Shown piece by piece: positions 106 to 49,528 of a DNA stretch of 64,000 nt. This stretch comes from Agelas oroides (Eukaryota > Porifera > Demospongiae > Agelasida > Agelasidae): assembly GCA_949130485.1 (NCBI GenBank), contig OX422189.1, forward strand, positions 9,119,220 through 9,183,219, in the 5' to 3' direction. The notes under the pieces are model-generated. The model ran no database searches. It worked only from the letters and a program-made list of their open reading frames with translations, and had not been told where the DNA came from. Positions within the stretch are counted from its first letter, which is position 1. The number at the start of each line of letters is the position of its first letter. A program made the position numbers and the translations under genes.

Positions 106-15520
<15,415 letters not shown>

Positions 15521-20091: not shown

Positions 20092-20215
20092 ATAATTATA
20101 GAGGATTGTGAGGGCTGGTGGTTGTCCGGTTGCCGTAGCTCAGTGGCAGAGTACTGGCTACACAAGCCAGAGGTTTCCTGGTTTCGATTCCCGGCGACTG
20201 CCAGCCTTCACATTT
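20092..20215 (+). mobile_element. tRNA-derived SINE-like element, copy 3 (core 20129-20199)
   Basis: Best preserved copy: acceptor GTTGCCG/CGGCGAC pairs throughout (one G-U), A box TAGCTCAGTGG, B box GGTTTCGATTCC, anticodon stem CTGGC/GCCAG. The 7-nt loop TACACAA lacks U33, which argues against a working tRNA. Confidence 0.6.
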
Positions 20216-26812: not shown

Positions 26813-28660
26813 CTAGAAGTTTGTAGCTGGTTTACAGCTGGAGATATAAAACGGAGTACATATTAAACACATCGTCTTGACCGCTTCGTCCGCAATTTTT
26901 ACGGTCATCCGCGTAATATTGCAATAACGCGCTACGGTCGGTAAAGAGAAAGCAAGTTTGGTGCACCCACAAGATTGAATCGAATCATGGAAGAGTTGAA
27001 GTAAGTCCTCTGACTGAGCCTCAAATGTGCATCTCATGAGTAGACGAAACAAACGTTGACTGTCAACTGAATGGGTACACAATTGAAGAAAATCGCACCA
27101 GAGTTTCTGAAAAGTAGAGCTGCAGTTCAGGCCCTTCAATCCGGCTATGAAACCTAATATTTCCATTCGATCTGGGTGATTTTGAATGATGCTGGATAAA
27201 GCCTCACATTGCTTGTGAGGTGATTCTATTTGATCACTCAGGTAACATGCAGCCATGTACTCCTGAAATGTCAAGTGTCTAAATGTGTAACTTTTATTAA
27301 GTCCTAGGCTTGTGTAGACAGGATTTACAATCATCAGGCCTTGAGTATGATCCAGGCCAGTTACATCAATATCATGGTATGCAAGGGAGGAGAGTTTCCT
27401 AAAGACTGACTTAGAGGACTCGGGCAATTCCTCTAAATCATCCATTTCACTTCGTCTTTCAGCTTCTGAAAGCAGGAGATATGTGGTTAGGTTGGTGTAC
27501 AGTTCGGTTTGTGTTTTTGGAAGGGGGTTGTCTTGTGCACGCCTTGGATCACGCAGCAAGCAGGATACAAGTGAAGCATTGACTGGAAGGTCACAAAGTG
27601 CAAGGAATTGCTCATTTTGTCTTGCGTATTCTTCGACATCAATGATGGAGAGATTAGTGTGCTTAGTAAAATAATCTGTGATTTGCTGCGGAGAGAAGCA
27701 CTTGATCTCAATATGTTTTGGGGCAATTCCACGAACTATGGTAGTTCCAATTGAACGAGAGGTGACAAGGAACTTGGTTCGTGGCAAAGAATCTCCTATC
27801 TTCCCAGCCAGAAGGTTGTAGATGTATGATCTTCTCTGGTATTGGTAGGGTACTTCATCCCAGCCATCCCAAATGAAACAAACTCCTGCACCAAATTGCT
27901 TCTTCATGTGAGCCACAACAGCTTGCTTCAGCTCATTGTCGGGGCAGGGAATGATATCCACAAGAGCTTTTGCCATGTGATACTGCGGATCACGGAGATT
28001 GATGCTGATGAGGAGCTGAATCTCAGGATAAAGTTCACCTCTTGCCCATCGCCGCTTTATCTCCCACACCAATGTGCTCTTTCCAGAGCCAGCAGCACCT
28101 TGGATCAGAGTAACCTTCCTTTCCTCCTCTCCATAAGTAAACAGGTCTTCTATCTCCAGGGATTTTACCGCAGTTCTTACCCTTGTTTGTAAAGAAAGCT
28201 TGACGTAGTGAAAGTCGTGTGCTGGGATGAATGGAAACTCGGCAGTTCCTGGTGGTAGTTCTTGAAGATATTGCTCAACAAGGTATTGATGGTACCTGTC
28301 TAGCTCGTTCTTCATCTGCGGAGAAATGGAAGCCACTAGCTTCATCATTGTAGCCACCTTGTAGCTTAGATCTACATCTCCAGCTTTGTAGAAGATTTGA
28401 ATGAGGTGTTGGTAGGTTGCCTTGTAACTGTACTTTGCCTTCCATTTCCGTAAGCAGGCAAGCTTTTGCTGGTGGTAGGTACGATTGTCAGATCTGATTT
28501 CTTCTTCTTCAACTTCTTCAATTGACATGTAGGGGGCAAATTTTTCCCATTGAACAATCTTGCTGGCAATGTCTGCAAGATGCTCATCTGTGCAAGGTCT
28601 CCCGAGTTCGCTTGCTGACACACCTCGAAGTAGGTCATGCAGCCCTGGTTGTGCCTCCAT
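26813..28660 (-). CDS. NLR-like receptor: death-like domain + NACHT, no LRR in ORF
   Basis: 615 aa, single exon, ATG at 28,660 with purine at -3. Residues about 10-110 form a death-fold domain (KLACLRKWKAKYSYKATYQH is the typical DD core). NACHT follows: Walker A GAAGSGKST at 188-196, the RDPQYHMAKALVDIIPCP segment, Walker B FIWDGWDE with D265/D268/E269, sensor-1 VTSR, the LPKTQTEL winged-helix region and FRHLTFQEYMAAC. All NTPase residues are intact. The last 45 or so residues look like read-through into non-coding DNA, and no LRRs are in frame. An LRR remnant lies about 570 bp downstream. Likely a cytosolic pattern-recognition receptor of the sponge NLR expansion, either spliced to LRR exons I cannot place or truncated. 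Confidence 0.85.
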   Translation of the reverse strand: MEAQPGLHDLLRGVSASELGRPCTDEHLADIASKIVQWEKFAPYMSIEEVEEEEIRSDNRTYHQQKLACLRKWKAKYSYKATYQHLIQIFYKAGDVDLSYKVATMMKLVASISPQMKNELDRYHQYLVEQYLQELPPGTAEFPFIPAHDFHYVKLSLQTRVRTAVKSLEIEDLFTYGEEERKVTLIQGAAGSGKSTLVWEIKRRWARGELYPEIQLLISINLRDPQYHMAKALVDIIPCPDNELKQAVVAHMKKQFGAGVCFIWDGWDEVPYQYQRRSYIYNLLAGKIGDSLPRTKFLVTSRSIGTTIVRGIAPKHIEIKCFSPQQITDYFTKHTNLSIIDVEEYARQNEQFLALCDLPVNASLVSCLLRDPRRAQDNPLPKTQTELYTNLTTYLLLSEAERRSEMDDLEELPESSKSVFRKLSSLAYHDIDVTGLDHTQGLMIVNPVYTSLGLNKSYTFRHLTFQEYMAACYLSDQIESPHKQCEALSSIIQNHPDRMEILGFIAGLKGLNCSSTFQKLWCDFLQLCTHSVDSQRLFRLLMRCTFEAQSEDLLQLFHDSIQSCGCTKLAFSLPTVARYCNITRMTVKIADEAVKTMCLICTPFYISSCKPATNF

Positions 28661-33306: not shown

Positions 33307-36300
33307 ATGGATGCCCAACTTTCTACAATACTGGAGGCCATATCAACACAGAAACAAAATGAAATATGTACTGATCTCTTTTTGAGTGCTACTGCAAACA
33401 TAATGGAGGGGGGAAAAGACTATGGACCCTTTTGTAATGAAGGTCCGGAGTGGGGTGTGATTGTGGAGAAAATTTTTATGAATGATGAAGCTCATAGGTA
33501 TACTGCTTTGAAGTTGTGGAAAGAAAGGAGAGAGCACAAAGCAACCAACCGGGAACTTATTGGGGTCATGGTAAGAAATGGGAATTTTCAGCTAGCACGT
33601 GAAGTTGCCAGTCTACTTGCTTCAGGACCAACACCGGAGTTAATAATGGAAGTACTTAAAGGGTACCTAGCCAAGTATTACAACATGCTGTTTCCACCTG
33701 CTATACCCACCCACCCCCATGAAGTTCCACTTGGGTTTGTTGGAGGTTGCCCATTTACTAAGAGAATGATTCCACAAGTAGCTCTTGTGCGAGATGGTGA
33801 GGAGATTCACCATATCCAACTTGAAAGTTGTGGTGATATTTTCCAGTCAAGTAAAGTTGCAAGAGCAAAGCTTCATGGGAAAGTAGCTACTGGCCAAGAG
33901 TTCAATCATGTCACCATTGTAGAAGGTGTTGCTGGGTCAGGTAAGAGTGCAATGTGCTGGTATATGAGCCACGAGTGGCATAAGCAAAAGCTGTTTCAAG
34001 AGTTCCCACTCTTTGTGTTCATATCACTTAGTGATCCAGCAATACGGTCTGCCAAGATCCTTGCAGATTTTGTACCACACCCTTGTGAAGAAATGAGGAA
34101 AGCAGTTGCTGATCAGATCAGTAGAACTGAGGGAGAAGGCCTAGCCTTGGTTGTTGATGGTATTGATGAGGCACCACTATCCTTTGATAACCTTGGCTAT
34201 CCTTTTCTAGAGGTGCTTATTGATGCTATCTTTAGCTGGAAAAAGGCAGCTGTACTTGTAACATCTCGCCCATGTAGTCCCCAGTTGAAGTTTCTGACAT
34301 CATGTATGGAAAGCTACGAACAGATTTTCATGTGTGGCTTTTCACTAAGTGGTGCAATACTGTTTACACTTTCTTGCAACCCTGAAGTACCCTTGACCAA
34401 AATCTTACAAGAACCCAACAATTTAGGTCTTTTATCTTCATCTCATCTTCCATTTAATGCAGCTGTTGCTGCACAGATAATTAGAGAGGCAACTGACTGC
34501 AGCAATTTGCCCCAGACCCAGACTGAACTTGTTCTAGCGTTTCTTCTTCAGTTTTTTCAGAAGTGCACTGAAGGAGACCTGACAACCGACAAGATCTGTG
34601 AGATGGTAAAAACACCTCATCACTGTATTAACTGGCTCCTTCCCAATACACTGAAACAAGCCTTCAGGGATTTTGGTGAAATTGCCATGGATATGAAGGC
34701 TTCAGGAACAACTACAATATTTGCCAATCAGAAACCAGACACTATGTCAACAGAGCTCTTCACTGGCTTGATGCAAGGAACTACTTCTTTTGACTATAAG
34801 CATGCTATTGACTCACTGCAGCAAAGGCAATATCGATTTCCACACAGCATCATCCAGGACTTTTTCATTGCCTTTTCACTGCAGTATATGGAATCAGAGA
34901 AAGTAGTCCAGTACTTGCAAAATGAAACTAAGCAATGTGTCCTCTCACCAGTGCTCTCATTTTATGCTGGTCTTACTGGTCTACGAAAGCTTTCATGCCT
35001 TAATCCTTTGTTTCAGCAGTTGGCTCCTAATCCTTCCACTGATATTAGTATTCAGGTAGTAATGTCTCTTCTTCTAAGTGCTGTTTATGAGTCACAATCA
35101 CGTGAAGTTATCCAGTATGTAATTTACCAAATCAGTGCGAAGCATGACTTCCATACTGGGCCTGTTAGGCTGGAACTATCATCACTTCCACCTTACATTC
35201 CTCATACCATTTATTACCCCCTAGCTTACTTTCTTGGCAATGTGAACTTTGACAACAAGCTTTTGACTGTGAACTTAGCCAATAATTCAATTGGTGACAA
35301 ACTTTTTGATACAATAGTGGATTTTTTCAGAGCCATCAAATCAAATACTGCAAAACTGCCTGTTAGGCACTCTGATTTGAACTCAGTCATTGTGATGCTA
35401 CTAATGGACAACAATGCATTAACACATCAGTCCAGTTGCTACCTATTTGAAACTGTGCGGAAATGGGAGAAAAACACTATGGAATTTGGTTTTTTGAGCC
35501 TACGAGGAAACTGGCATAAGGAAACAACTATTATCCATGAAGCATTGGAGTCTCTTGTGTTGTCTGTTTCCCAGACTCCAGCCCTACAGGGTTTAGACAT
35601 TAGTGGAAATGAGATCACCGGTGACCATATAAACTATATTACAGTTCTGCTTGAAGGATCTGGTATGCTTCGATCCCTTAATCTTTCTGATAATGACATT
35701 GGCAGTGAATTCAACTCACTAGCACCAGCACTTTCGAGAAGTTCCTTACGTGTTCTCAGCTTATCTCGGTCCCAGGTTAGTGACAGTGCCCTTGAACTTC
35801 TTGGAAATGTTCTAAAAGAAAACCAGTCACTAGAGTGCCTAGATGTCTCATTCAACCAGGCCATCACTACTGGTGGACTTACAAAATTCCTAGCCTGCCT
35901 AGCCAGAAATGATGTGTTGAATTTTCTGTATGGAGTGGGTCTTCCTTGGGTGCAGCAGCACAGATCTATTCTTGATGTGATCAAGGCTCAAAGGCTAATA
36001 AGAGGAGTCAAAACAAAGTTATCAGTTGAAACCTCTTCAAGCTTGGATCTGGCTGAAAATTTTCAGTTAAATGCCAGTGCCATGCTGTGCGACTACATTA
36101 TCCAAAAATCCTCTAAACAAGTGTGTACTTTGGAACACCTAGAAATGGTTGCAGATAAGATCACTGCACCGGAAGCTATGGTAGCAGGTATGGGAATACA
36201 CTTTGAGAGAAACTCCTCTCTCCCTCCTGAGGCAATAGCTAAAGCAATTTTGATAAAGGTTTGGACAACGAATAAAGTGACTTATAGTGATATCATGGAG

Positions 36301-39300
36301 ATACTATCCCTCACTGGAGAACATGCAGCTATTGCAAAACTTCATTCCCTTCTAAGTCAGACGAGGCCAGGAATTGAACATATGGTGACTACATGCCTAG
36401 TAGAATCATACAAACAACAACCTTACTTTGAACGAAGTTTAGTTTCAGAGAGTTTTCCTGACAGAGATAGCATCCTCTTCGCAGTTGACTTGAACCATTT
36501 AATCACTGGCTCACATGGTGAAAGGGAAAAAGTTTCACTGAGACAACTGGTCCAACAAGGTAAAGTGGTCCTATTTGAAGGAGTATCTGGGTCTGGGAAA
36601 ACCACTCTTTTAGCTCACACCTGTATTGGATGGTCTTTGTCTGTAGGGCCTTGGTTCAGAGATTTCAAGCTTGTTATTAAAGTACCTCTTGATGATCCTA
36701 CAATACAGAGAGCCAGTTGTCTGGCAGATCTGATTCCCTTTTCTTATGATGAACTGCGTGAAGCTACCGCAGAATACATTGCGCAGAGACGTGGAAAAGG
36801 TATTGTATTTCTGCTTGATGCATTTGACTGTGTGTCATCTGAACTCTTGCAGTCTTCATATTTGGCTCATCTCCTCAACATATCTTCCTCGTCAATTCCG
36901 CTGGCAGCTGTTATCATTGCAACACAACCAAGAACAAGTAACCTTGGCCCCTGCATAATTTCCAACAGAGCCTCACTCCCAGACCTTGCTGAAGAGAGCA
37001 GAAAGTTTGTGTTTAATGAGACAGTTCACTCAAGCAATCTTTTTACAACTCCTGCCATGAATTCCCTTTGTGCAATTCCACTCTATGCTTGTGTTATTGC
37101 CCATCTTCTGAAGTTTACCGGAGATGTAAATTGTATTCCAGAAACCAGAACCACTATAGTAAAGTGGTATCTGAACACCAAGATTATAACATTCTTGAAG
37201 TGCTATTTTCCTGTGCATACACTGCCAGATTGCAGCCATGACTTCACTTCAGTTGAAGACTTTGGAATTCTTCCCAAAAAGGTGTTTTGGATTCTGAAAG
37301 GGATATGCAGAATTGCTTTTCAAACACTCCAAGACACCCAGAGTGTATTCACAGAACAGCATGAGTTGGGCATTGCTGATACACCAGTCATTTCTGCTCT
37401 TTGCAGCCTGGGAATCATACAAGTGACCCAGCATGATAAACTGAAATATGAGTTTGCTCACTCCATATTTCAGGAATATCTAGCAGCTCTTCACCTAGCA
37501 TCACACTCCCAAAGTTGCGAAGTCAATCTTGTATTACAGCTGATTATGTCTTCATCCTTCATCTTACCCTTCCTTAGTGGACTGGTAGGTACTCACATTA
37601 CTCCTATCGAGGTCACCACATCCTTGACTAACTCTCTCCACACTTTGGCAGAGGTTTTGCCTAAAGATGGCTATCACCATAGGCTGCTTACCTTCCTTCA
37701 TTGCATTTTTGAGTCAAGGTCAATGGCCTGGTGTGAAAAAATATTTCAGCAGTTGCAAATAGTTGAACCACAAAATGGCTTGAAGTTGTGCCTGGGTGAT
37801 GCATCACTGAGCATAAGTGACTGCACAGCCATCAGACACTTCTTTGAATTGTGTCTCAAGAAAGAAATGAATGTCATGATTGATGCTCAGTCTTGTGAAG
37901 TGGATGAAAAAGGACTAGGAAGTTTATGTGAGGTAGATCAATATGTAACCAATGCCTCTTATGCATGCTTGTTGCTTCCTAGAAAACAACTTGACACTCA
38001 ACAAGCTAGCAATGTGTCCTGGCAGGAATTATCTGACCAAATCTTGATGACAGCTTTTGCTACCTTGCTTTACAGTAAAAGAGATGAAAACTCATTACAG
38101 CAGACAATCAATGGATTGTTGCAAGATCTTTCATCTGAACAGCTTAACAAGCGCTGTAGCGATCTTCACCTTCTAGGCATTGCTAATGAAATGGAGAAAT
38201 GGAAAAGTTTTGCATCAGCTTTTCTTGCTGAAAGTGATGCTCACCTTATTGAGGAGCACTTTAAGATATCAGAGCACCAAAAGTTTGTGATGCTTAAGAG
38301 GTGGAAAGATGTAAATGGTGAGAAAGCAACTTACAATGAGATCATCAGGATACTGGTATTTACACAAAGAGAGCTTCATCTAGGGAGTTGTGTAAAGAGC
38401 CTACTCCTCACCAAGCCATCACGACAGCAAGCATTTGACTTTTTTTGCCAGTACCTTCACAAGTGCTACCTACAGGTGCCTCCACCTCAATTCTCTTGCA
38501 CGTCAGCTTTCCACTTCATTGAACCACAGCTTTTATTTTGCTATAACAGCAATGAAGACAGCAGATTACACAAAGTGTTTGAGCATGATGCTGTAGATGT
38601 TGTTCAGTATTCCATCCCTGTTGCTGAAATTTTTAATGCTGGCCAAATTAAATCAGAGTTTGCAAATTCTTCTGTAGGCACAAAGCCCATCATATTGCTT
38701 GAAGGTCTTGCTGGTTCAGGCAAAACTACTCTTGTATGGTACATGTGCCAGAAATGGGCAGAAAGGAAGTACTACAATGATTTTAAACTACTGCTGTTGA
38801 TTTCTTCTAGAGATCCAATGACACACTCAGCAAAGTCCCTTCCAGATTTTATCCCACATCCAAGTGAACATGTGAGAAACCTTGTAGCCAAATATATACA
38901 AGAGAAAAGAGGAGAAGGTGTGGCCTTTATAATAGATGATTGGTCACAAATGTCTGTTCACTCTTTGCCTGCTATTATTAAACTTCGTGATGCCTATCTT
39001 GAAGGCAATGATCTCAACAGAGCAGCCATGCTGATAGTTTCCTGTCCAGGCACAAGTAGAATTTCTGTACCAACCAAATATCAGAAAGTTGTGTTACAAG
39101 GTTTTACTCCTCAACAAATGTATAGCTACCTCTGTAATCATCCAGAGCATTCCTCCTCAAAGCTAGAACAAAACTTGAAAAATAACCCTTCGTTTGGAGC
39201 AATGTGTCAGCTTCCTTTATATGCTGGACTTGCTTTGCAAACCAGTGAGATGTTACAAAACTGCCCTCCACCTGAGACACAAACTGAAATGATGAAAAAT

Positions 39301-42300
39301 CTTATACTACTGAAGACAAAATTATTATATGGGAATTATGGTGTTAGTGTAAGTACCTTTGCTGATATTCCTCCTTATATTCGCGTAGCCCTTGACAGGA
39401 TGGGACGCTTGGCACTCTATTTTAATACAGCTTCTACAATTGTAGAAATGGCAACATATCCTGAGTATCAGAATCATATTCACACTTCATTAAGCCTCGG
39501 GTTGATGGAAGCTTGCAGTGGTACAGACTATTGCTATCTAACTCGGCCCTTAATGTACAGATTTGTACATCGTACTTTTGAGGACTTTGTAGAGGCTTAC
39601 GCAATGTGTGACTATACTTATGCTGAAGCAACTTCTCATATTTCCTGGTTGACTATGGATATGTCCCCTTGCAGGAATGTGCTACAGTTTTTTGCTGGTT
39701 TGAGTAGATTACATGCTGGAATGGATACTTTATGGTTCTTAAAACAAGTGATTGAGGTTGCTGTTGATGGTGACTGCCAAACACACTTGAAAAAACGTTT
39801 ATGGCTGCTAGTCTTTGAAAGTATCTACGAAGCCAGATTGAGCTACCTGTGTCAGTATGTTCTCTGCCACCTCATGCAAGACCTCCCAGAGTATCTTGCC
39901 ACAATCAGTTTTGGTAACATTCCAGAGATGGTTTCTCAAGTAACAGTTAATGCCATTGGTTACTTTCTGTCTAATATATATTCCTCAGCCACCATTTTTT
40001 TGGACTTGACTAATAACTATCTTCAAGATGAAGGGGTATCACTCCTTTTCCATCACATTATGCAAAAGGCTAAATCATTGACCTCTAATAGCCTCAAGTC
40101 GCACAAACCCATTGAATTATTTCTTGGTTTAGCAAAAAATGCTATTTCCCATCAAGGCACTGAGAGCCTCTGCAGGCTCATTCAGCAGTACCCCTTCATC
40201 AGCTGTATTGACCTCAGTGGAAATTGGAATTCCCCTAATTATCCCAGTATACAAACAGACATTGATGCTGCACTGAGCTGCCTGGTTGAAACTGTATCAA
40301 CTTCAACAAATTTGAGACTGCTTGACCTCAGTGCAAATAACATTACTCCAGCTAACTTGCCACATTTGAAAGCTATTGTGGAAAGATGCACATCACTCAC
40401 TACTCTCTACCTCTCAGATAACAACATTGGCTCAGAGGGTACAGTGCTTGTGAAAGCCCTCAAGAATAACTTGTGCATCCAGGCCATTAGTTTTCAAAAC
40501 TGTAATATTGATGACAAGTTTATTTCAGAACTTGGGTACTGTGTACTGTCAAACAAAGTTCTGAGAAGGTTGGACATTTCACTAAACCCAGCAATTACTT
40601 TTGAGGCTCTTCTCTCCTTTGTCAAACTCCTAAAACAGAATGCCAGCATAGAGACTTTATTTGTCACCTGTTCAGAGGCTGAATTGCTATTGCTGAAAGA
40701 TGTTGCAGATGAAATTGATCGACTTAGATCAGATGTCACTTCCCATTTTGAGCTCTTCAACTGCCCCACTGGTATGTATGCACAGCAAAAAAGTGTGCAC
40801 ATCTTCACAAAGGAAAGTTTTCTGGATCTCCAAACTTCTGGTAAGTGTCTCACCATTTGTAGTGATGAGGATCTTCATGAAGTAGCAGAAGATATTGGAT
40901 CAGAGCACACACTGACTCTTCTGCTTGGTGGTGAGGGCAAAATTAGTACCATTAAAGAATTATATCCAGAACAACTAAGCAGGCAGAAGTATAGCGCTCT
41001 TAGCCAATGGAAGGAATTGCAAGGGAGCAGTGCTACCTACAAAGCCTTGAATGCTATATTTGAGAAATGCCGAGAAGCAAAAGCAACCAGCAAGCTCTTT
41101 CAAATCCTCAGGAGACCATCCCTGAGCCAACTTTCAAATGTCTCAGCTTATGTCAAGGACTGCTATCTGCAGCCCTGGACATCTGGTATAATTACAGCCT
41201 CTGCTGATGTGATGGTCAACTATATTCCACTAACTCTAACCTCAAAAAAGATTCGCGAAAGTCAGTTCATATCTGAGGTAGTAGCAGAAAGTGATATATT
41301 ACATCCAGCTCAGACAATTCTCATCGAAGGCATTGCTGGTGCAGGGAAGAGTACCCTGGCGCAGTACATGGGAAAGAAATGGGCTGATGGAGGTCTCTAC
41401 CACAGCTACAAACTTATAATTTGGGTATCACTTGGAGATCCAGAAGTCCAGTCTGCTGAGTCATTGAGGGATCTTATCCCCTTTCCAGTGCAAGAAGAGA
41501 AATCTGCAATAGCAACTCAGATACAGAGCACGAAAGGAGAAGGTGTTGCTTTTATATTTGATGGGCTGGATGAGTTGCCTTGTGACTCAAGTTACACACT
41601 CCATTTCTTGAAAGAGTTTCACATATATCTTCCAGAAGCAGCTGTTACCATATTATCCCGTCCTGGATCCCTCAAACGTCTCACCTCAAGTCATCGAGAC
41701 TGGAATGCTGTGAACAAAGTATCCTTGCAGGGCTTCAACAGATCTCAGCTTGGTGCTTACTTTCACAAGTGTTTGGAAGATGCTGATGCTTGTAAGAGAG
41801 CTGATGAATTTCTGGCTGAAAACCACACCTTACAGGATGTGTGCAAGATTCCATTTTATGCTACCATTATTGCATGCTTGTTACAGTTTTCAGCTACTGA
41901 AATCCCACAGACAAGGACTGGTTTATTGAAGTCACATTTGAAGTACTTACTTCTAAATCACATAGACACCCATACTTCTTGGGACCAGCCACTTGATCTT
42001 TTACCAGGAGATTTCCATTGTCTCCAGCACTTGAAATCATTTCCTGTTTATGAAAACCTTGTGAAGGTCTGCAAGCTGGCTTTTATAACCCTCCGAAGTT
42101 CTCGAACTGTCTTTGGAACTGAAGAACTCAATCAAGTAAAAATCTCAAAGGTATCTGAGTGTATGGGTCTTGTATCCAGCACTAATATGCACATCACACA
42201 ACTCGGGGGTGGAAGTAAGCATGTTACACAAAAGGTTCAGTTTGTGCACTCGGTTGTACACCAGTTTCTTGCTGCACTTCATCTCACCACTATTGACTTG

Positions 42301-43083
42301 AAAGAACAGACCAAGAACATGATGTCCTTCATCGAAGCCAATCCACCCTTATTTTCACCTGCCTTCCTAGCTGGCATCGTCAGTGGAAACAGTAATGAGC
42401 AGGCTTATTTCGATTCACTTCATGCCCTATTAGTTGGAACAACTGCACAACAGCTGAGTCCTTCAAGTGCTCAAGAAAGGCTATTGCTTTTACTTCACTG
42501 TGTGTTTGAATCCCACTCATCTGCTATGGTGAAGGTAATAACAAAAAGCCTGGACCTCGATAAGCAGCTAAGTGCCGGAGTCAAAATAGAACTTAGTGGC
42601 TTGGAAGTTACCATGGATGAAACGGATTTTGCAGCTGTTGGTTACTTCCTGGCTAAACTGATGTCTGAACTTCCTTCAACCATTCCTGCTATGGTCGTGT
42701 TGAATTCCTGTGACCTGAATGATACAAATGTCAGTGCAGTCAGTTATCACTACTGCAGAGATCTTCCATCATGCAAGCTTATTTTAGGGCTGAAAGACAG
42801 CCAACTCTCCAATAAGGCTGAGCGTGTATGCTTCCACACACCCGCACTTGTTTGGTACGATATGACCCCTGCTACTGTTGGAAGCAAGAAATTCTTTCTT
42901 TGTGATCCACTGAAGCAACTACTAGAAACTCTCTCAAGAAAGTGTAAAGCTGAGCAAGCTATTCTGCTGTCTCTTCACACAGACCTACACACACATGCTG
43001 CTATTAGTGGGCAGCATACTCAATCCACTCCTATCCAAACTTCAACCCCAGTTTTTTGGAAAGAGCTACACAATATTTACTGA
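33307..43083 (+). CDS. Giant four-NACHT NLR (four death-like/NACHT modules, two LRR blocks)
   Basis: 3,258 aa in one uninterrupted exon; ATG context is good (A at -3, G at +4). Module 1: death-like about 25-105, NACHT Walker A GVAGSGKS 207-214, Walker B DGIDE 284-288, sensor VTSR (R321), LRRs about 655-865. Module 2: death-like about 939-1018, Walker A GVSGSGKT 1092-1099, Walker B DAFDC 1171-1175, sensor ATQP (Q1207), no full LRR block. Module 3: death-like about 1600-1700, Walker A GLAGSGKT 1800-1807, Walker B DDWSQ 1877-1881, sensor SCP (C1913), LRRs about 2229-2450. Module 4: death-like about 2515-2602, Walker A GIAGAGKS 2675-2682, Walker B DGLDE 2752-2756, sensor SRP (R2785), C-terminal tail with vestigial LRR. 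Standard NLRs have one NACHT. No signal peptide or TM; expected cytosolic. Function is inferred as innate sensing or scaffold; the ligand is unknown. Confidence 0.9.
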   Translation: MDAQLSTILEAISTQKQNEICTDLFLSATANIMEGGKDYGPFCNEGPEWGVIVEKIFMNDEAHRYTALKLWKERREHKATNRELIGVMVRNGNFQLAREVASLLASGPTPELIMEVLKGYLAKYYNMLFPPAIPTHPHEVPLGFVGGCPFTKRMIPQVALVRDGEEIHHIQLESCGDIFQSSKVARAKLHGKVATGQEFNHVTIVEGVAGSGKSAMCWYMSHEWHKQKLFQEFPLFVFISLSDPAIRSAKILADFVPHPCEEMRKAVADQISRTEGEGLALVVDGIDEAPLSFDNLGYPFLEVLIDAIFSWKKAAVLVTSRPCSPQLKFLTSCMESYEQIFMCGFSLSGAILFTLSCNPEVPLTKILQEPNNLGLLSSSHLPFNAAVAAQIIREATDCSNLPQTQTELVLAFLLQFFQKCTEGDLTTDKICEMVKTPHHCINWLLPNTLKQAFRDFGEIAMDMKASGTTTIFANQKPDTMSTELFTGLMQGTTSFDYKHAIDSLQQRQYRFPHSIIQDFFIAFSLQYMESEKVVQYLQNETKQCVLSPVLSFYAGLTGLRKLSCLNPLFQQLAPNPSTDISIQVVMSLLLSAVYESQSREVIQYVIYQISAKHDFHTGPVRLELSSLPPYIPHTIYYPLAYFLGNVNFDNKLLTVNLANNSIGDKLFDTIVDFFRAIKSNTAKLPVRHSDLNSVIVMLLMDNNALTHQSSCYLFETVRKWEKNTMEFGFLSLRGNWHKETTIIHEALESLVLSVSQTPALQGLDISGNEITGDHINYITVLLEGSGMLRSLNLSDNDIGSEFNSLAPALSRSSLRVLSLSRSQVSDSALELLGNVLKENQSLECLDVSFNQAITTGGLTKFLACLARNDVLNFLYGVGLPWVQQHRSILDVIKAQRLIRGVKTKLSVETSSSLDLAENFQLNASAMLCDYIIQKSSKQVCTLEHLEMVADKITAPEAMVAGMGIHFERNSSLPPEAIAKAILIKVWTTNKVTYSDIMEILSLTGEHAAIAKLHSLLSQTRPGIEHMVTTCLVESYKQQPYFERSLVSESFPDRDSILFAVDLNHLITGSHGEREKVSLRQLVQQGKVVLFEGVSGSGKTTLLAHTCIGWSLSVGPWFRDFKLVIKVPLDDPTIQRASCLADLIPFSYDELREATAEYIAQRRGKGIVFLLDAFDCVSSELLQSSYLAHLLNISSSSIPLAAVIIATQPRTSNLGPCIISNRASLPDLAEESRKFVFNETVHSSNLFTTPAMNSLCAIPLYACVIAHLLKFTGDVNCIPETRTTIVKWYLNTKIITFLKCYFPVHTLPDCSHDFTSVEDFGILPKKVFWILKGICRIAFQTLQDTQSVFTEQHELGIADTPVISALCSLGIIQVTQHDKLKYEFAHSIFQEYLAALHLASHSQSCEVNLVLQLIMSSSFILPFLSGLVGTHITPIEVTTSLTNSLHTLAEVLPKDGYHHRLLTFLHCIFESRSMAWCEKIFQQLQIVEPQNGLKLCLGDASLSISDCTAIRHFFELCLKKEMNVMIDAQSCEVDEKGLGSLCEVDQYVTNASYACLLLPRKQLDTQQASNVSWQELSDQILMTAFATLLYSKRDENSLQQTINGLLQDLSSEQLNKRCSDLHLLGIANEMEKWKSFASAFLAESDAHLIEEHFKISEHQKFVMLKRWKDVNGEKATYNEIIRILVFTQRELHLGSCVKSLLLTKPSRQQAFDFFCQYLHKCYLQVPPPQFSCTSAFHFIEPQLLFCYNSNEDSRLHKVFEHDAVDVVQYSIPVAEIFNAGQIKSEFANSSVGTKPIILLEGLAGSGKTTLVWYMCQKWAERKYYNDFKLLLLISSRDPMTHSAKSLPDFIPHPSEHVRNLVAKYIQEKRGEGVAFIIDDWSQMSVHSLPAIIKLRDAYLEGNDLNRAAMLIVSCPGTSRISVPTKYQKVVLQGFTPQQMYSYLCNHPEHSSSKLEQNLKNNPSFGAMCQLPLYAGLALQTSEMLQNCPPPETQTEMMKNLILLKTKLLYGNYGVSVSTFADIPPYIRVALDRMGRLALYFNTASTIVEMATYPEYQNHIHTSLSLGLMEACSGTDYCYLTRPLMYRFVHRTFEDFVEAYAMCDYTYAEATSHISWLTMDMSPCRNVLQFFAGLSRLHAGMDTLWFLKQVIEVAVDGDCQTHLKKRLWLLVFESIYEARLSYLCQYVLCHLMQDLPEYLATISFGNIPEMVSQVTVNAIGYFLSNIYSSATIFLDLTNNYLQDEGVSLLFHHIMQKAKSLTSNSLKSHKPIELFLGLAKNAISHQGTESLCRLIQQYPFISCIDLSGNWNSPNYPSIQTDIDAALSCLVETVSTSTNLRLLDLSANNITPANLPHLKAIVERCTSLTTLYLSDNNIGSEGTVLVKALKNNLCIQAISFQNCNIDDKFISELGYCVLSNKVLRRLDISLNPAITFEALLSFVKLLKQNASIETLFVTCSEAELLLLKDVADEIDRLRSDVTSHFELFNCPTGMYAQQKSVHIFTKESFLDLQTSGKCLTICSDEDLHEVAEDIGSEHTLTLLLGGEGKISTIKELYPEQLSRQKYSALSQWKELQGSSATYKALNAIFEKCREAKATSKLFQILRRPSLSQLSNVSAYVKDCYLQPWTSGIITASADVMVNYIPLTLTSKKIRESQFISEVVAESDILHPAQTILIEGIAGAGKSTLAQYMGKKWADGGLYHSYKLIIWVSLGDPEVQSAESLRDLIPFPVQEEKSAIATQIQSTKGEGVAFIFDGLDELPCDSSYTLHFLKEFHIYLPEAAVTILSRPGSLKRLTSSHRDWNAVNKVSLQGFNRSQLGAYFHKCLEDADACKRADEFLAENHTLQDVCKIPFYATIIACLLQFSATEIPQTRTGLLKSHLKYLLLNHIDTHTSWDQPLDLLPGDFHCLQHLKSFPVYENLVKVCKLAFITLRSSRTVFGTEELNQVKISKVSECMGLVSSTNMHITQLGGGSKHVTQKVQFVHSVVHQFLAALHLTTIDLKEQTKNMMSFIEANPPLFSPAFLAGIVSGNSNEQAYFDSLHALLVGTTAQQLSPSSAQERLLLLLHCVFESHSSAMVKVITKSLDLDKQLSAGVKIELSGLEVTMDETDFAAVGYFLAKLMSELPSTIPAMVVLNSCDLNDTNVSAVSYHYCRDLPSCKLILGLKDSQLSNKAERVCFHTPALVWYDMTPATVGSKKFFLCDPLKQLLETLSRKCKAEQAILLSLHTDLHTHAAISGQHTQSTPIQTSTPVFWKELHNIY

Positions 43084-43866: not shown

Positions 43867-46662
43867 TTATACATCATCCCACAGAAATCTTCTGTCACCA
43901 AGTGCCTTTGCTAGTTGCTTGTTGAAAGGTTGGAAGAACTCCCTGAGAACGGTCCTGGTCTCTGGCAACATCCCAATCCCTTTTGTCCATGTGTCCTTGT
44001 TGCTGTTGGCATGACCAAACAGTACATCTGCAAGATCATAAGGCGACTGGATAGGCACCTCTAGAAATCTCCACACCCTCTGCAGCAAAGAGTAGGGACA
44101 CTTCTCCAAATCTTCAGTCCTCAGAAACAGCATCTGTTGCCTCGGAACAAATCTTAGCCATTTGGCTACATGAACATAATAGAAGCTTATTCCCAGACGC
44201 AACACTTGCACTGTACCAGTAACATTGGTACCACTAAGAACAACTTCTGCACAGACTTCCAGGGGATACATTCGTGAACAAGTGTGAAACTCCTTCAGTT
44301 GAAGTAACACAGTTTGGTGAAAGATCTTGGGCATGTCTGTAAACAGTCTTGACTTGTTTATCACAGCTGCTGTGTGTGCAGTGCGGTTAAGCTTCAGTCT
44401 GCTCAAGTAGAGAAAGTCTGAATACAGTCTTTCAGCTGGCTCTCTCATTATTATAACATACTTTGCATTTGGTACTACACTTGACACAAGAAATGGCATG
44501 ATGCACGGATTATCCAACTTGCGTGTATCCCACACTGTCGACTGGCTACCGTCAATTGTCAGAACTTGAGGATGAGTAGAAATAAACTTGGAGGCAGAGG
44601 CAAAATACATTAGGTACTTCAGCACTGCAAGAAGATTGTGGGGAAATCGTGCATTGAAGGGGTACCTTGTCCACCAGTGCACCTCCTTTCGCAACCCTGG
44701 AACTATATTTCTATGCTTTACAAGCATTTCATAAAGTTGAGTGCTTCCACTTTTCGGGAAACCAATGAGGTATATTTTAGGAAGGCACACAAGGTGTTGA
44801 CGTGACGAAAAAGATAGAGCATAGCTCAGTACATTGGCTGCTTGCTTATCTGTGAAGTTGACTGCTGTTTTTAATATCCTGGCAAGTCTGGACGGTTCGG
44901 CAATGTGCATGTACCAACAGGGGTTACGAAATTCAGGGGAAAAGTCAGATGCGGCAGGAATGATGGTGTGTAAGGCATTTAAAAATGACTCCACGTCTCT
45001 CGGTTCTGTCTTGTTTGCTATCATGTCCACAGTGGATATATTGGGGTTACTGCACACCTCAAAGTTACGGGTGAGATCAACTGCTCTGCTGTGGTGTGGT
45101 TGTACAGCAGTTGCAATGTGAGCATGAGAAGACACTGCATCTGTGGCAGGAACAGTGATGAAATCATAAACATTACTAAAGACCTTGCATGATGGAAAGC
45201 ATATATACAACATCAACAGTACAGTTGGATGTACAGTAGAACCCGACTTACAGGACACTCCTAAATAAAGGACACCTTGCTAATCATGACACTTGACCAA
45301 TTCCCAACATCATATAAATAAATACGTAAGGACACCTCACTAATCAAGACAAATATTTCGGTACCAAGGGTGTCAGTATTAGGAAGGTTCTACTGTATAC
45401 AAGTTTCTATTGATTTGTGCTATTTGATATTATTTTATAAGCTGTTGTATAGCAGCTCACTGTAGAGTACATCTCTTTAATGTCTAAACGACATAAAGGC
45501 CAACCAAGCAAAGTTGATTCATGTTTATCATTTTCACCCACATGCTTTTCTTCCCTAGCTATGGCAGCAGCATTGTTGCCTTTTATATAATGCTTATACA
45601 ATGTACTCCAAATACACACAATAAAACGAAAGGCCACCTACACACTATCTGCAGTGGAGGTGAATGAAAAATCACACATCAACTAGTAGTGCTTATACAA
45701 ATGTACTCCAAGCCACCCACTCACTATCTGCAATGAAAAATCGCACATCAACTTTTGCCTGGTCATGCAAGCAAACTAACTATTATGCCAAGTTGATGCA
45801 CTCTTTGTATTTTTTTTACTCATGTGCAACCAGTAGCCGGTCCTCCCACGCATTGTAACTCGCCTCGGAATGAGGCAACGGTTTAACATCAGGTAATTGC
45901 GGGGCTCTTGTGCTTTTTACGTGAGTTTGGCTTCATGAGACTACACAAGCGGGTCTTTAATGTTGCAAAATTTCACCAGGTTTGTATGCCACGCCCATAG
46001 TATTATACATGTGCGGCATGCGCATGGAGCAAATTCACGAAATTATTTCAACGAAATCTAATTAAGACCCTCGAAAATTTAGTGCTACAATCAAGTATAT
46101 GGTATATTTCTCATGTTATTGAAGACAGTTTTCTTTAACACTACAAGTAACAAAAGCTGCATGGGGTGGAGGTCTAGGGGCTAAGGGTGATCTATGCAAT
46201 CAACTCCCCTTGGCGCCCAACCTAGTCCCACAAGCCAGACCTGGGTTGCGATACTAGGCCCAACCATGCAAAGCGTCGTACCCAACCTCAAGCTGACATA
46301 TAGGTGAGATCAACTATTCTGTTGTGTGTAGTTCAATATACACAGTAGTTACAATGCGTGCAGACACGGAGTCTAATCTGTGGCAGGCACAGTGACGAAC
46401 ACATGCATGATGGTGGACTAATAGTCATACCTATATGCGCCAACACACCTTGGATTGGGGTGATGGCACGCGGCAGAGAGAAATTGAAGTTAAAGGTGTC
46501 GTCCATGCTCAGACTACGTCGCTGCCTCCTATCCCGTACAACAAAGGTGTGCATCGGATCAGGTTTTTGCTGTGTCCATAACACACTCAAGCTGTACAGG
46601 TTCAGCATGACGGACAGAAACAGCAGCCCCATCAACACGTATCTCCACGTACGGGTTCGCAT
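43867..46662 (-). CDS. CHST15-like: CHST15-like sulfotransferase A (type II Golgi membrane protein)
   Basis: Two exons: 46449-46662 (ATG at 46,662) and 43867-45140, joined by a phase-1 intron (CAA G / AT GCA); about 495 aa. Exon 1 encodes a short cytosolic tail and one TM (YVLMGLLFLSVMLNLYSLSV). Exon 2 encodes the catalytic domain: 5'-phosphosulfate loop GFPKSGSTQLYEML, KEVHWWTRYPF, STVWDTR, 3'-phosphate loop YVIIMREPAERLYSDFLYL, and the C-terminus LREFFQPFNKQLAKALGDRR. These match the N-acetylgalactosamine 4-sulfate 6-O-sulfotransferase family, which transfers sulfate from PAPS to chondroitin/dermatan chains. KEVHWW replaces the usual KEPHWW. The acceptor sugar in this animal is not determined by sequence. 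Head-to-head with the paralogue at 47,265. Confidence 0.85.
45232..45397. mobile_element. MITE-like element with TACAGTAGAACC inverted ends
   Basis: Perfect 12-bp inverted ends TACAGTAGAACC / GGTTCTACTGTA, 166 bp, with internal AAGGACACC(T)(T/C) direct repeats. It lies in the intron of sulfotransferase A. End sequences of this type are common on pogo/Tc1-derived miniature elements (from memory). Confidence 0.7.
46300..46410 (-). pseudogene. Relic duplicate of the sulfotransferase A exon-2 start
   Basis: About 100 bp resembling 45,062-45,160: GTGAGATCAACT, then CTGTGGCAGGCACAGTGACG versus CTGTGGCAGGAACAGTGATG. It includes the CTGCCACAG acceptor, followed by ATTAG, an immediate stop. It is therefore a decayed partial exon in the intron between exons 1 and 2. 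Confidence 0.6.
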
Positions 46663-47264: not shown

Positions 47265-49528
47265 ATGTTCAAGATGGGCATACACTCGAAGCTCAGCTTC
47301 AAGTTTCTAGTGAGTCTGTCGTTGCTAGTGAACGGCATTTTTCTCGTACGGATGTTACTGAGCCACTCGGAGAGTGTAAAGCTGGTGTCTGTCAACTCCT
47401 TAGAGCTAGAGCCTCCACGACTGTCACACCGCATGTCAAGCCCTGGTAAGCTAATCCATAGATACGTAATATGACACGGATCTAAGGCTAATCAGCGTAA
47501 GTGTGTACATACATGTACATGTACATGTACATGTACGTGTCATCTTGCAGTGGTTGGATATGGATATATGTAGGTAGATGTACATTCTGTGACAGATAGA
47601 TGTATAGAATTGTCATGACTTATTGCTACCTGTCTTCTCAGATCTGGCCTAAGTTTCCATCAGTTTCATCAGTTCCCATATATGGCATGGCAAGCAACAA
47701 AAGCTAGGCAGTGGCCTGGGAATGAGTCACGTGTACTGAACATGTACTGCTATAGTCTGGAGCTAGCATAATTCATTTTTCAGGCAGGAGAATATTCCTC
47801 TCAGTAGGCTTTTACACGTATGAATACTGAATGCCAGAAATCAAGGCGAAGAAAATCCTTCACCAAAAGTGAGAATCAAACCTGAAACTTTAGTCCACAA
47901 TAGAAAACCTGTTACGTATTTACTAACACTTTATAAACTGACAGTCATAGTGTATGCAATACACAACTCAGTCTCCTGTTGTATTGTGGTACCACTGAAC
48001 AGTTAATTTTGTTTGTGGTACCAATAGTGCAGAATCAGTGCTGGCATTCGCAATTCATGCAAATTGACGGCTTTCTGACTCCAAAAATAAAAGTTGCACC
48101 AATTCAAGAAGCTAAGGGAATAGAGAGTTTACGAATGTAAGCTCTCAGTCTGTACCATAACACGACCAATGTCTACAAGCCTGCTAAGTAGCCTGTTTGA
48201 TTGATCGTCTATTAACGCCGTTGTCCATTACTGAATGGTTAATATTCTTTCTTGTTTTCTCAGGTGCAGACGAAACTCATTCAGATAACGACTACCACTT
48301 CCAGGCTGGTGCCATCCTCAAAGATGTCCATCCCTCAGAACTGGACACATGCACTGTGAACGACTCCTCACTCCCTCACCACACTAGGAACCTTAACAAT
48401 TTTATAAACACCTTACAGACCATAATCCCAGCTCCAACTGAATTCTTTTCACAGTATAAAAATCCTTGCTGGAATTCAACCATCTCAATTACAAACAAGA
48501 TCCAGAAATTATTCAAACATAAAGGAGGATCGTTAACCGACGCTGAGGCTTCCTATATCATGAGTGAAATGTTTAGTCCAGATACAAGAAACCAGAGGCG
48601 AGTAGAACAGTCTCTAGTCTGTATTCCTAAAGTCTTCTTTATTGGTTTTCCGAGGAGCGGAAGCACGCAGCTCTACAGAATGTTGACTCGACACCCCCAG
48701 CTTGTTGGTGGAGCTAACAAGGAGCCACACTGGTGGACTAAATTCTCCTTCACAGCAAAATTCCCTCACAATATCCTTGCCGTTGTCCGTTACCTAATTC
48801 ACTATCAAGAAGCAGCTAAGCATGTGGCACAACACCATGACAGTTTGCTCATTGATGCCAGCCAGTCAACTGTATGGGATACTCGAAGTACCAAGAATCT
48901 CTGCATACTGCCCACTCTCATCTCCAGCCTGGTACCCTCTGCCAAGTACATTGTATTGATGAGAGACCCAGTTGGCAGATTGTACTCTGATTTCACTTAC
49001 ATTTGTAGTGAATACTGGCGGGTTCACAAAGCACAGCCACCCTTGCAGTACACAAAGCATAGTCCAGAAATGTTCCACATTGCTGTGCAAAGAGAGTTGC
49101 AAGGATTTCAGAAGTGTTTAGAAAGCCATCCCTTAGATGTGTGCACACATTTTGCGCTCCAGGGAAGTGAAGACAAATCAATATCTGGATGTGGGCGGGT
49201 AAGGTTAGGAATAAGTTTGTACTTTGTGCACCTTGTTAAATGGCTCAAGGCCATTCCACGAGACAACTTTTTGTTGTTAAGAACCAATGATCTTGAGAAA
49301 GATCCGTATGCCATTTTGAAGGAGATATGGAAGTTTCTGGGGCTTCCTCCACAGTCTACAGTCGAGTTACATGACATACTCTACAATCACACTCACAGCA
49401 ACCTACTCTCACAAACCAGGATGCAGCCTCAAACACAACAGATGTTACAAGAATTCTTTAAACCCTACAACAGAAAATTGGCAGAACTTTTGAAAGATGA
49501 CAAGTATTTATGGCAAGACAGCTCCTAG
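47265..49528 (+). CDS. CHST15-like: CHST15-like sulfotransferase B (type II Golgi membrane protein)
   Basis: Two exons: 47265-47445 and 48264-49528, phase-1 intron (CCT G / GT GCA), about 481 aa. Exon 1 encodes a short cytosolic tail and TM (FLVSLSLLVNGIFLVRMLL). Translation may instead start at the ATG at 47,274. The catalytic domain has GFPRSGSTQLYRML (5'-PSB), NKEPHWWTKFSF, STVWDTR, YIVLMRDPVGRLYSDFTYI (3'-PB), RLGISLYFVHLVKWL and QEFFKPYNRKLAELLKDDKY. It shares exon structure and domain order with gene A, which shows that the pair arose by inverted duplication. Predicted reaction: PAPS-dependent sulfation of glycosaminoglycan in the Golgi lumen. N-glycosylation sequons in the stem and catalytic region agree with lumenal location. 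Confidence 0.87.
47514..47537. repeat. (ACATGT)n short repeat
   Basis: Four units of TACATG in the intron of sulfotransferase B, self-complementary. Confidence 0.8.

What the first reader, a model, noticed from the sequence alone, without database searches (positions are those of the whole stretch)
33307..43083. One gene, four NACHT modules: a 3,258-residue tetra-NLR
A single intronless frame carries four complete P-loop NACHT modules. Each is preceded by a death-like domain of about 80-100 residues, with LRR blocks after modules 1 and 3. Known animal NLRs carry one NACHT and oligomerise after ligand binding. A covalently linked tetramer would be a pre-assembled receptor or scaffold with fixed stoichiometry. 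I know of no described family with this layout, though I cannot search.
Basis: partly seen in the sequence, partly recalled or inferred. Interest (0 to 1): 0.92.

Follow-up and report, generated by a model that had tools for sequence, protein, structure and literature searches.

The report
Conserved four-in-one NLR immune receptor gene
A single animal gene encodes four complete NLR immune-sensor modules fused head to tail, also found full length in other public sequences, with two modules keeping and two losing their ATP-splitting residues, which suggests a receptor complex that comes pre-assembled.

Summary
Confirmed and strengthened. Frame 33307-43083 (+) is open for 3,258 codons and carries four [Death]-[NACHT-helical-winged helix] modules. 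LRR blocks follow modules 1 and 3; short LRR-like stubs follow 2 and 4. It is not a mis-join: three further full-length sequences (85, 84, 53% identity, 3,264-3,269 aa) lie on other contigs, and searches with modules 1, 3 and 4 found no second copy in this 259 Mb genome. Trees give (M1,M3),(M2,M4) within one clade: one gene became an A-B pair, then A-B-A'-B', before these four proteins diverged. New here: the modules are not equivalent. Walker A and the winged-helix histidine are kept in 16 of 16; Walker B and sensor-1 arginine are intact in M1 and M4 but degenerate in M2 and M3 (M3's arginine in three of four). Each A-B pair thus holds one hydrolysis-competent and one pseudo-ATPase module. 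No other protein with more than one complete NACHT appeared among 72 examined, and my paper searches found no description. Best reading: a covalently pre-assembled, asymmetric NLR tetramer presenting four death domains. The mechanism is inferred; there are no RNA or protein data, and no call identified the organism.

The parts
33307..43083 (+). Whole frame: 3,258-aa tetra-NLR, order [Death-NACHT-LRR]-[Death-NACHT-stub]-[Death-NACHT-LRR]-[Death-NACHT-stub]
   Evidence: three sequences covering 100% of its length
33340..33642 (+). Death domain 1 (aa 12-112)
   Evidence: profile-profile 97.8% to N3+N4+neighbour; helical in the AF2 model; no own Pfam Death hit
33889..34353 (+). NACHT 1 (aa 195-349): Walker A, extended Walker B DGIDE and sensor-1 SRP all intact
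34354..35163 (+). HD1-WHD-HD2 region of module 1 (aa 350-619, borders approximate), winged-helix His 513
   Evidence: AF2 model against NLRP3 and NOD2 over residues about 110-900; His
35164..36006 (+). LRR block 1 (aa 620-900)
   Evidence: LRR_6; AF2 strand-helix repeats
36094..36390 (+). Death domain 2 (aa 930-1028), in the least conserved segment of the chain (39% to P0004)
   Evidence: profile-profile 96.3%; identity of N2 segment 901-1084
36544..37002 (+). NACHT 2 (aa 1080-1232): Walker A kept; catalytic Glu replaced (DAFDC) and sensor-1 Arg replaced by Gln, in 4 of 4 proteins
37003..37776 (+). HD1-WHD-HD2 region of module 2 (aa 1233-1490, borders approximate), winged-helix His kept
37777..38118 (+). 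Truncated LRR-like stub of module 2 (aa 1491-1604), about 2-3 strand-helix units
   Evidence: AF2 secondary structure (low confidence at the end); no Pfam LRR in this quarter
38119..38430 (+). Death domain 3 (aa 1605-1708)
   Evidence: Pfam Death stretch 1626-1681 of P0004 lies in the matching segment
38668..39120 (+). NACHT 3 (aa 1788-1938): Walker A kept; Walker B degenerate (DDWS) in 4 of 4, sensor-1 Arg lost in 3 of 4
39121..39897 (+). HD1-WHD-HD2 region of module 3 (aa 1939-2197, borders approximate), winged-helix His kept
   Evidence: homology to module 1 (M1 residues 9-875, E 1.4e-75) and His; not modelled
39898..40746 (+). LRR block 3 (aa 2198-2480)
   Evidence: LRR_6; LRR chains in the PDB matched by sequence
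40834..41136 (+). Death domain 4 (aa 2510-2610)
   Evidence: Pfam Death best stretch 2543-2600
41293..41751 (+). NACHT 4 (aa 2663-2815): Walker A, DGLDE and SRP intact; the most conserved segment (96, 98 and 72% identity to P0002, P0003, P0004)
41752..42576 (+). HD1-WHD-HD2 region of module 4 (aa 2816-3090, borders approximate)
   Evidence: NOD2_WH hit 2918-2956; His kept; not modelled
42577..43080 (+). Short LRR-like stub and C-terminal tail of module 4 (aa 3091-3258)
   Evidence: reading of the sequence and homology to module 2; no Pfam LRR; not modelled
26813..28660 (-). Neighbouring single-NACHT gene (Death-NACHT, 615 aa, no LRR detected), a single-module relative

Best explanation
This is a real gene for a tetra-modular NLR. 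It arose when a Death-NACHT-LRR gene duplicated in tandem and fused into an A-B pair (B's LRR shortened), and the pair then duplicated in frame to A-B-A'-B'. Proposed mechanism: the chain is a pre-assembled, asymmetric NLR complex. Modules 1 and 4, with intact hydrolysis residues, act as the ADP/ATP switches. Modules 2 and 3 can still hold nucleotide but should hydrolyse poorly, and serve as standing acceptor or scaffold subunits (compare CED-4, described as constitutively ATP-occupied and non-hydrolysing). A signal read by LRR 1 and/or LRR 3 releases M1, which packs on M2 in cis; M4 does the same on M3. The four death domains are thereby brought together, about one turn's worth of a death-domain helix (turn size recalled), to nucleate a death-domain adaptor or caspase without waiting for oligomerisation. 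Shown by sequence: the gene, the domains, the duplication order, the fixed asymmetric degeneration, conservation. Inferred: the biochemical consequences, cis packing, ligand and downstream partner.
For: Four NACHTs and four death-like domains. Three further sequences at 85, 84 and 53% identity over 100% of the query, every gap in the alignment 12 residues or shorter. No second copy in a 259 Mb genome with modules 1, 3 and 4 as queries; next best hits 29-31% identical. (M1,M3) 100/98, (M2,M4) 96/93 and all sixteen modules 98/94 with own-genome singles included. Constraining (M1,M2) or (M3,M4) is disfavoured (p-AU 0.0017 and 0.0007; 0.013 and 0.014). Walker A and winged-helix His in 16 of 16 modules. 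Canonical Walker B plus sensor-1 Arg in 65 of 69 single NACHTs, Arg in 69 of 69, against degenerate M2 and M3. AF2 models of M1 and M2 match NLRP3 and NOD2. CED-4 analogy: a passage of PMC7583971.
Against: No transcript, protein, ligand or partner data. One conserved copy is unlike fast-turning pathogen sensors. P0004 keeps the sensor-1 Arg of M3 and has Glu in place of Gln1881, so M3's degeneration is less complete there. The need for hydrolysis differs among NLRs: the same review says recombinant NLRP1 showed no hydrolysis and that a Walker A mutant of NLRP1b was more active, so motif loss need not mean what I infer. The model of M2 has mean pLDDT 66.5 and neither model reports on inter-module packing. 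In a tree holding a spurious 42-residue row the sixteen-module clade and (M2,M4) were not recovered, though not rejected (p-AU 0.138 and 0.15); with nine singles the sixteen-module support was 87/85, and long branches meet at both pairings.
Confidence: 0.5

Rival explanations
1. A constitutive scaffold or buffer, not a switch: the chain recruits death-domain partners or caps single-NACHT NLRs by hetero-oligomerising with them, and the canonical residues in M1 and M4 are kept for folding and nucleotide binding.
For: Two of four modules lack hydrolysis residues; many single-NACHT relatives exist in the same genome, at least 105 NACHT places, among them relatives alignable from Death to LRR on C16, C18 and C23.
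Against: M4's NACHT is the most conserved segment of the protein and keeps every catalytic motif in 4 of 4 proteins, which is hard to explain without ATPase function.
Confidence: 0.22
2. A conserved housekeeping or developmental NLR (self-monitoring or guard) rather than a pathogen sensor; the linkage fixes stoichiometry for a structural role, as NLRP proteins may do in the oocyte cytoplasmic lattice.
For: One copy found here, conserved at 53-85% elsewhere, beside a large single-NACHT repertoire; PMC12909245 (abstract) reports sponge NLRs grouping mainly by species; cytoplasmic-lattice entries with NLR chains are among the structural matches.
Against: Four death domains and NOD-type NACHT-LRR modules are a signalling architecture; structural matches to lattice entries only reflect the shared NLR fold.
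Confidence: 0.2
3. The frame is expressed as a polyprotein or through internal promoters and works as four separate NLRs.
For: Modules are separable, each with its own death domain; the death-to-NACHT linkers of both models are of low confidence.
Against: Linkage and total length (3,258-3,269 aa) are kept down to 53% identity, although separate genes would do.
Confidence: 0.06
4. Assembly artefact or read-through of a decaying array.
For: The genome's NACHT places include pairs with equal scores and frame lengths (C4:963900 and C4:981518), where mis-joins could happen.
Against: Three further full-length sequences on other contigs; modules only 24-28% identical to each other, so reads are not confused between them; conservation across all segments.
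Confidence: 0.02

Closest known systems
Sponge NLRD genes (DEATH-NACHT-LRR; PMC12909245: abstract, passages and section 3.4 seen)
   Same: Each A module is a Death-NACHT-LRR unit
   Different: In what I saw of that paper the categories are single Death-NACHT-LRR units; here four units in one chain, with LRR-short B modules and two degenerate NACHTs
NOD2 / NLRP3 / NLRC4 (solved structures)
   Same: Fold of NACHT-HD1-WHD-HD2 (and LRR in module 1) in the models of modules 1 and 2
   Different: Single module; CARD or PYD rather than Death; oligomerise in trans (recalled)
CED-4 (PMC7583971, passage; PMC10320015, search listing)
   Same: Precedent for an ATP-occupied, apparently non-hydrolysing STAND subunit
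   Different: CARD, one module per chain, trans oligomer; NB-ARC type (recalled)
Plant CC-NBS-NBS-LRR proteins such as BPH18 (PMC5041133, search listing only)
   Same: More than one nucleotide-binding domain per chain
   Different: Two NBS with one CC and one LRR, not repeated full receptors; plants
Wheat tandem kinase-pseudokinase proteins (Pm24; PMC6997164, search listing only)
   Same: Active and pseudo-enzyme copies fused in one immune protein (works-like analogy)
   Different: Kinases, unrelated fold

Membership tests
NLR (NACHT-LRR STAND receptors) | NACHT domain with Walker A | tested here: met
   Four NACHT stretches over cut-off; Walker A in 16 of 16 modules
NLR (NACHT-LRR STAND receptors) | Intact extended Walker B and sensor-1 Arg | tested here: inconclusive
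   Met in modules 1 and 4 (4 of 4 proteins), not met in modules 2 and 3 (M3 of P0004 keeps the Arg); mixed within one chain
NLR (NACHT-LRR STAND receptors) | HD1-WHD-HD2 with winged-helix His | tested here: met
   His in 16 of 16 modules; models of M1 and M2 match NLRP3 and NOD2; M3 and M4 not modelled
NLR (NACHT-LRR STAND receptors) | C-terminal LRRs | tested here: met
   LRR_6 after modules 1 and 3; only stubs after 2 and 4
NLR (NACHT-LRR STAND receptors) | Canonical layout: one NACHT per chain (legend in PMC5094078) | tested here: not met
   Four NACHTs per chain: a multi-module variant built of family members. Oligomerisation was not testable
NLRD subclass (N-terminal Death) | Death domain before NACHT | tested here: met
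   N1 and N2 by profile-profile comparison only
NLRD subclass (N-terminal Death) | Signals through death-domain partners | not testable with these tools
   needs binding or cell assays
Plant dual-NBS NLR | Two NBS (NB-ARC) domains with one CC and one LRR | tested here: not met
   Each module has its own death domain; NACHT 187.3 bits against NB-ARC 34.1

The most novel reading that the evidence does not exclude
A 'pre-wired inflammasome': one chain holding two switch NLRs and two pseudo-ATPase NLRs in the fixed order switch-pseudo-pseudo-switch, so that A-B and A'-B' work as cis sensor-acceptor pairs and four death domains are assembled in one activation step. It would be an animal NLR whose oligomer is encoded in the gene; I know of no other.
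Probability: 0.4. Interest if true: 0.9.

Novelty: new variant of a known kind. Interest (0 to 1): 0.76.

Why it matters
NLR oligomers are normally formed after activation, so how stoichiometry and subunit asymmetry control signalling is hard to test. A natural chain with fixed order and with hydrolysis-competent and degenerate NACHTs in set places would make that testable, for instance by mutating one Walker B at a time. It also gives a route (A, A-B, A-B-A'-B') from single receptor to linked complex, and a conserved gene to compare among otherwise fast-turning NLR repertoires.

Tried and rejected
Assembly artefact: rejected on the three further sequences and the genome searches. Missing upstream exon: an in-frame TAA lies two codons before the ATG; a splice-acceptor-like TTTGCAG just upstream allows a 5' UTR intron, untested. 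Codon-usage test of the frame: reference too small, weak signal (other frames scored as high in some blocks), not used. Other multi-NACHT frames: the five longest other frames among the 105 places (1,475-2,268 aa) have one NACHT each; the rest were not opened. P0020 has a partly repeated P-loop stretch, counted as two by the local profile, and I do not count it as multi-module. Relatives in viral and prokaryote contigs: none confirmed. Self-BLAST of the whole chain printed no internal matches and was replaced by module-by-module comparison.

Trees. One search used 16 of the other sequences; nine, without the long-branched ones; one search lacked most own-genome singles because my script read one strand and asked for a canonical P-loop; one search held a spurious 42-residue row for C2 and no C16, and there the sixteen-module clade and (M2,M4) were not recovered (not rejected: p-AU 0.138 and 0.15); one search is the corrected tree, with 5 other rows (4 of the 68 database singles and the neighbour) and 11 own-genome singles chosen by me. 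The AU pairings were named after a first tree had been seen, and treekit warned that long branches meet at M2/M4 and M1/M3.

Structure comparison covered about residues 110-900 of M1 and 120-704 of M2, so the death folds were not tested by structure; the NLRC4 match to M1 has rmsd 16.9. Papers: phrase searches for several NACHT domains gave 0, 10, 0 (at least three of six terms) and 0 papers; of the 10 I opened passages of two and judged the rest by title and abstract start. The papers most likely to hold a precedent, on Amphimedon and (by recalled DOI) Acropora NLRs, are not in the library, and supplementary tables could not be read.

Full report
WHAT IS THERE. The frame 33307-43083 on the + strand is open for 3,258 codons. 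From the window's base composition such a frame has a chance probability near 10^-74. Pfam NACHT matches it four times (E 2.4e-55 for the chain) and once in each quarter (E 8.4e-11, 2.8e-12, 1.9e-11, 2.2e-17). P-loops start at residues 207, 1092, 1800 and 2675. LRR_6 is found in quarters 1 and 3 only. An in-frame TAA two codons before the ATG argues against a coding extension upstream.

DEATH DOMAINS. Pfam Death matches the chain in two stretches (best 2543-2600) and matches three of the five N-terminal segments scanned singly (four modules plus the neighbouring NLR). That call lists only module 1 in full, and it has no Death match; the three are most likely modules 3 and 4 and the neighbour. 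A profile of the five segments finds death domains of Fas (E 1.7e-6) and RIPK1 in the PDB, ankyrins and THOC1, with unrelated chains such as pentatricopeptide proteins from E 0.04 up. N1 and N2 match the profile of N3, N4 and the neighbour at 97.8% and 96.3% probability; three control segments of the same chain score 0.1-0.2%. Pairwise the picture is uneven: N1-N4 78.2%, N2-N4 89.3%, N1-N2 only 3.1% (same call).

FURTHER SEQUENCES. A search over the whole chain against 5.8 billion proteins gave four matches at E 1e-5 or better among 6,883 candidates: P0002 (85% identity, 3,264 aa, cluster of 15 sequences), P0003 (84%, 3,269 aa) and P0004 (53%, 3,264 aa), each covering 100% of the query, and P0005 (24%, 13% coverage, one NACHT). 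They lie on contigs of different lengths; their species, and whether P0002 and P0003 (81.5% identical to each other) come from different genomes, are not shown. The four tetra proteins align end to end (P0004 55% to P0001 in that alignment) with gaps of at most 12 residues. A second search with modules 3-4 gave 58 proteins (7,992 best-sharing candidates scored) and a third with the conserved part of P0004 gave 12, nine of them new. Counting NACHTs with local profiles in all 72 proteins, the window's own included: 4 have four, 67 have one, and P0020 shows a partial repeat. No two-module intermediate was seen. The searches rank by shared words and the database may favour intronless genes, so absence is weak evidence.

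THE GENOME. The window lies at C7:9119220-9183219 of a 259 Mb genome in 141 contigs with at least 105 NACHT places (105 of 314 candidates scored, all over cut-off; none of the four NACHTs of this gene is among them, so the list is a lower bound; in the control the family rings in 11 of 14 genomes, over the cut-off in 3). None of the three module searches that were answered finds a second copy: next best are 31% (M4; C16), 29% (M1; its own module 3) and 29% (M3; its own module 1). Module 2 did not complete. P0002-P0004 are therefore not from this assembly. The five longest other NACHT frames (1,475-2,268 aa) hold one NACHT each. Single-module relatives alignable to module 3 from Death to LRR sit on C16, C18 (three), C23 and C4 (death-like N-termini printed), and a Death-NACHT gene without detected LRR lies 4.6 kb upstream in the window at 26813-28660 (-).

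ORIGIN. Module 1 aligns to module 3 through Death, NACHT and LRR (M1 residues 9-875, E 1.4e-75) and module 2 to module 4 (E 9.9e-45). In the corrected tree of 32 segments (P-loop to about 345 residues on) with own-genome singles, M1+M3 has 100/98, M2+M4 96/93 and the sixteen modules 98/94 support; each module is a clade across the four proteins. Constraining M1+M2 or M3+M4 is disfavoured (p-AU 0.013, 0.014; 0.0017, 0.0007). Searches agree; the sixteen-module clade has 87/85, with a faulty row, did not recover that clade or M2+M4 but did not reject them. The simplest history is one gene, then A-B, then A-B-A'-B', all before these four proteins diverged.

ASYMMETRY. Walker A and the F-x-H of the winged helix are present in 16 of 16 modules. 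In 69 single NACHTs (68 database proteins and the neighbour) the sensor-1 Arg is present in 69 and full Walker B plus Arg in 65; the exceptions are P0038, P0056, P0070 and P0072. M1 (DG[IV]DE, SRP) and M4 (DGLDE, SRP) are canonical in 4 of 4. M2 lacks the Glu and the Arg in 4 of 4 (DA[FI]D[CH]; Gln for Arg) but keeps both Asp. M3 lacks the second Asp in 4 of 4 (DDWS[QE]) and the Arg in 3 of 4; P0004 keeps Arg and has Glu in the last place. The lesions are fixed while the rest of M2 and M3 stays conserved (NACHT2 57%, NACHT3 65% to P0004, against 67% and 72% for NACHT1 and NACHT4). The A copy is the intact one in pair 1 and the B copy in pair 2.

HOW IT MAY WORK. [quoted passage not shown] it also reports NLRP1 without measurable hydrolysis, so the rule is not uniform. 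By analogy M2 and M3 would be nucleotide-holding acceptors and M1 and M4 the switches. Each A-B pair would close in cis and the four death domains would cluster to seed a death-domain assembly. This is inference; a scaffold role or a conserved housekeeping role is not excluded. One conserved copy, set beside the species-wise grouping of NLRs reported for sponges (PMC12909245, abstract), in fact favours a conserved ligand or self-monitoring over an arms race.

KNOWN OR NEW. Phrase searches found no paper describing a protein with several NACHT domains (0, 10, 0 and 0 papers; of the 10, passages of two were opened, and the rest judged by title and abstract start; the one 'three NACHT domains' hit is a figure legend of an oligomer model). 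PMC12909245 (12 of 13 places), PMC11797021 (12 of 19), PMC5094078 (6 of 6) and PMC2575513 (12 of 18) were searched for NACHT-related passages: none of the passages shown describes a multi-NACHT protein; supplements were not read. The Amphimedon and Acropora NLR papers are not held. I file it as a new variant of the NLR family.

Noticed in passing
P0003 around residues 1996-2080 (P0001 numbering): A local stretch of module 3 is only 28-49% identical to P0001 in P0003 while P0002 stays at 87%: a patch of replacement or gene conversion in the HD/WHD region.
   Followed up: partly
window 43867-45258 (-) and 48197-49528 (+): Two sulfotransferase frames in opposite orientation downstream of the giant frame.
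   Followed up: no
window 11118-12758 (-) and 20822-22585 (-): Two collagen-repeat frames; the second holds tandem units of 261 bases.
   Followed up: no
window 12819-13594: A 12-base tandem array of about 65 copies (95% matches); two overlapping frames run over it and are probably spurious.
   Followed up: no
window 54526-54950: GAGGGAGAGAG array (38.6 copies) inside the strongly strand-skewed stretch at 54-56 kb.
   Followed up: no
P0009, P0013, P0015, P0017 and others: 30 of the 58 listed relatives carry PF07679 (an immunoglobulin family, name recalled) besides NACHT, by my count.
   Followed up: no
G000:C18:717545-731357: A tandem trio of single-module Death-NACHT-LRR relatives, among the nearest in the genome.
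   Followed up: partly
P0020: A protein with three GRPGSGKT P-loops about 50 residues apart, a partial internal repeat.
   Followed up: no
window 6627-6698 and 20129-20202 (+): Two tRNA-like matches, the second weak (32.7 bits against a gathering score of 29).
   Followed up: no
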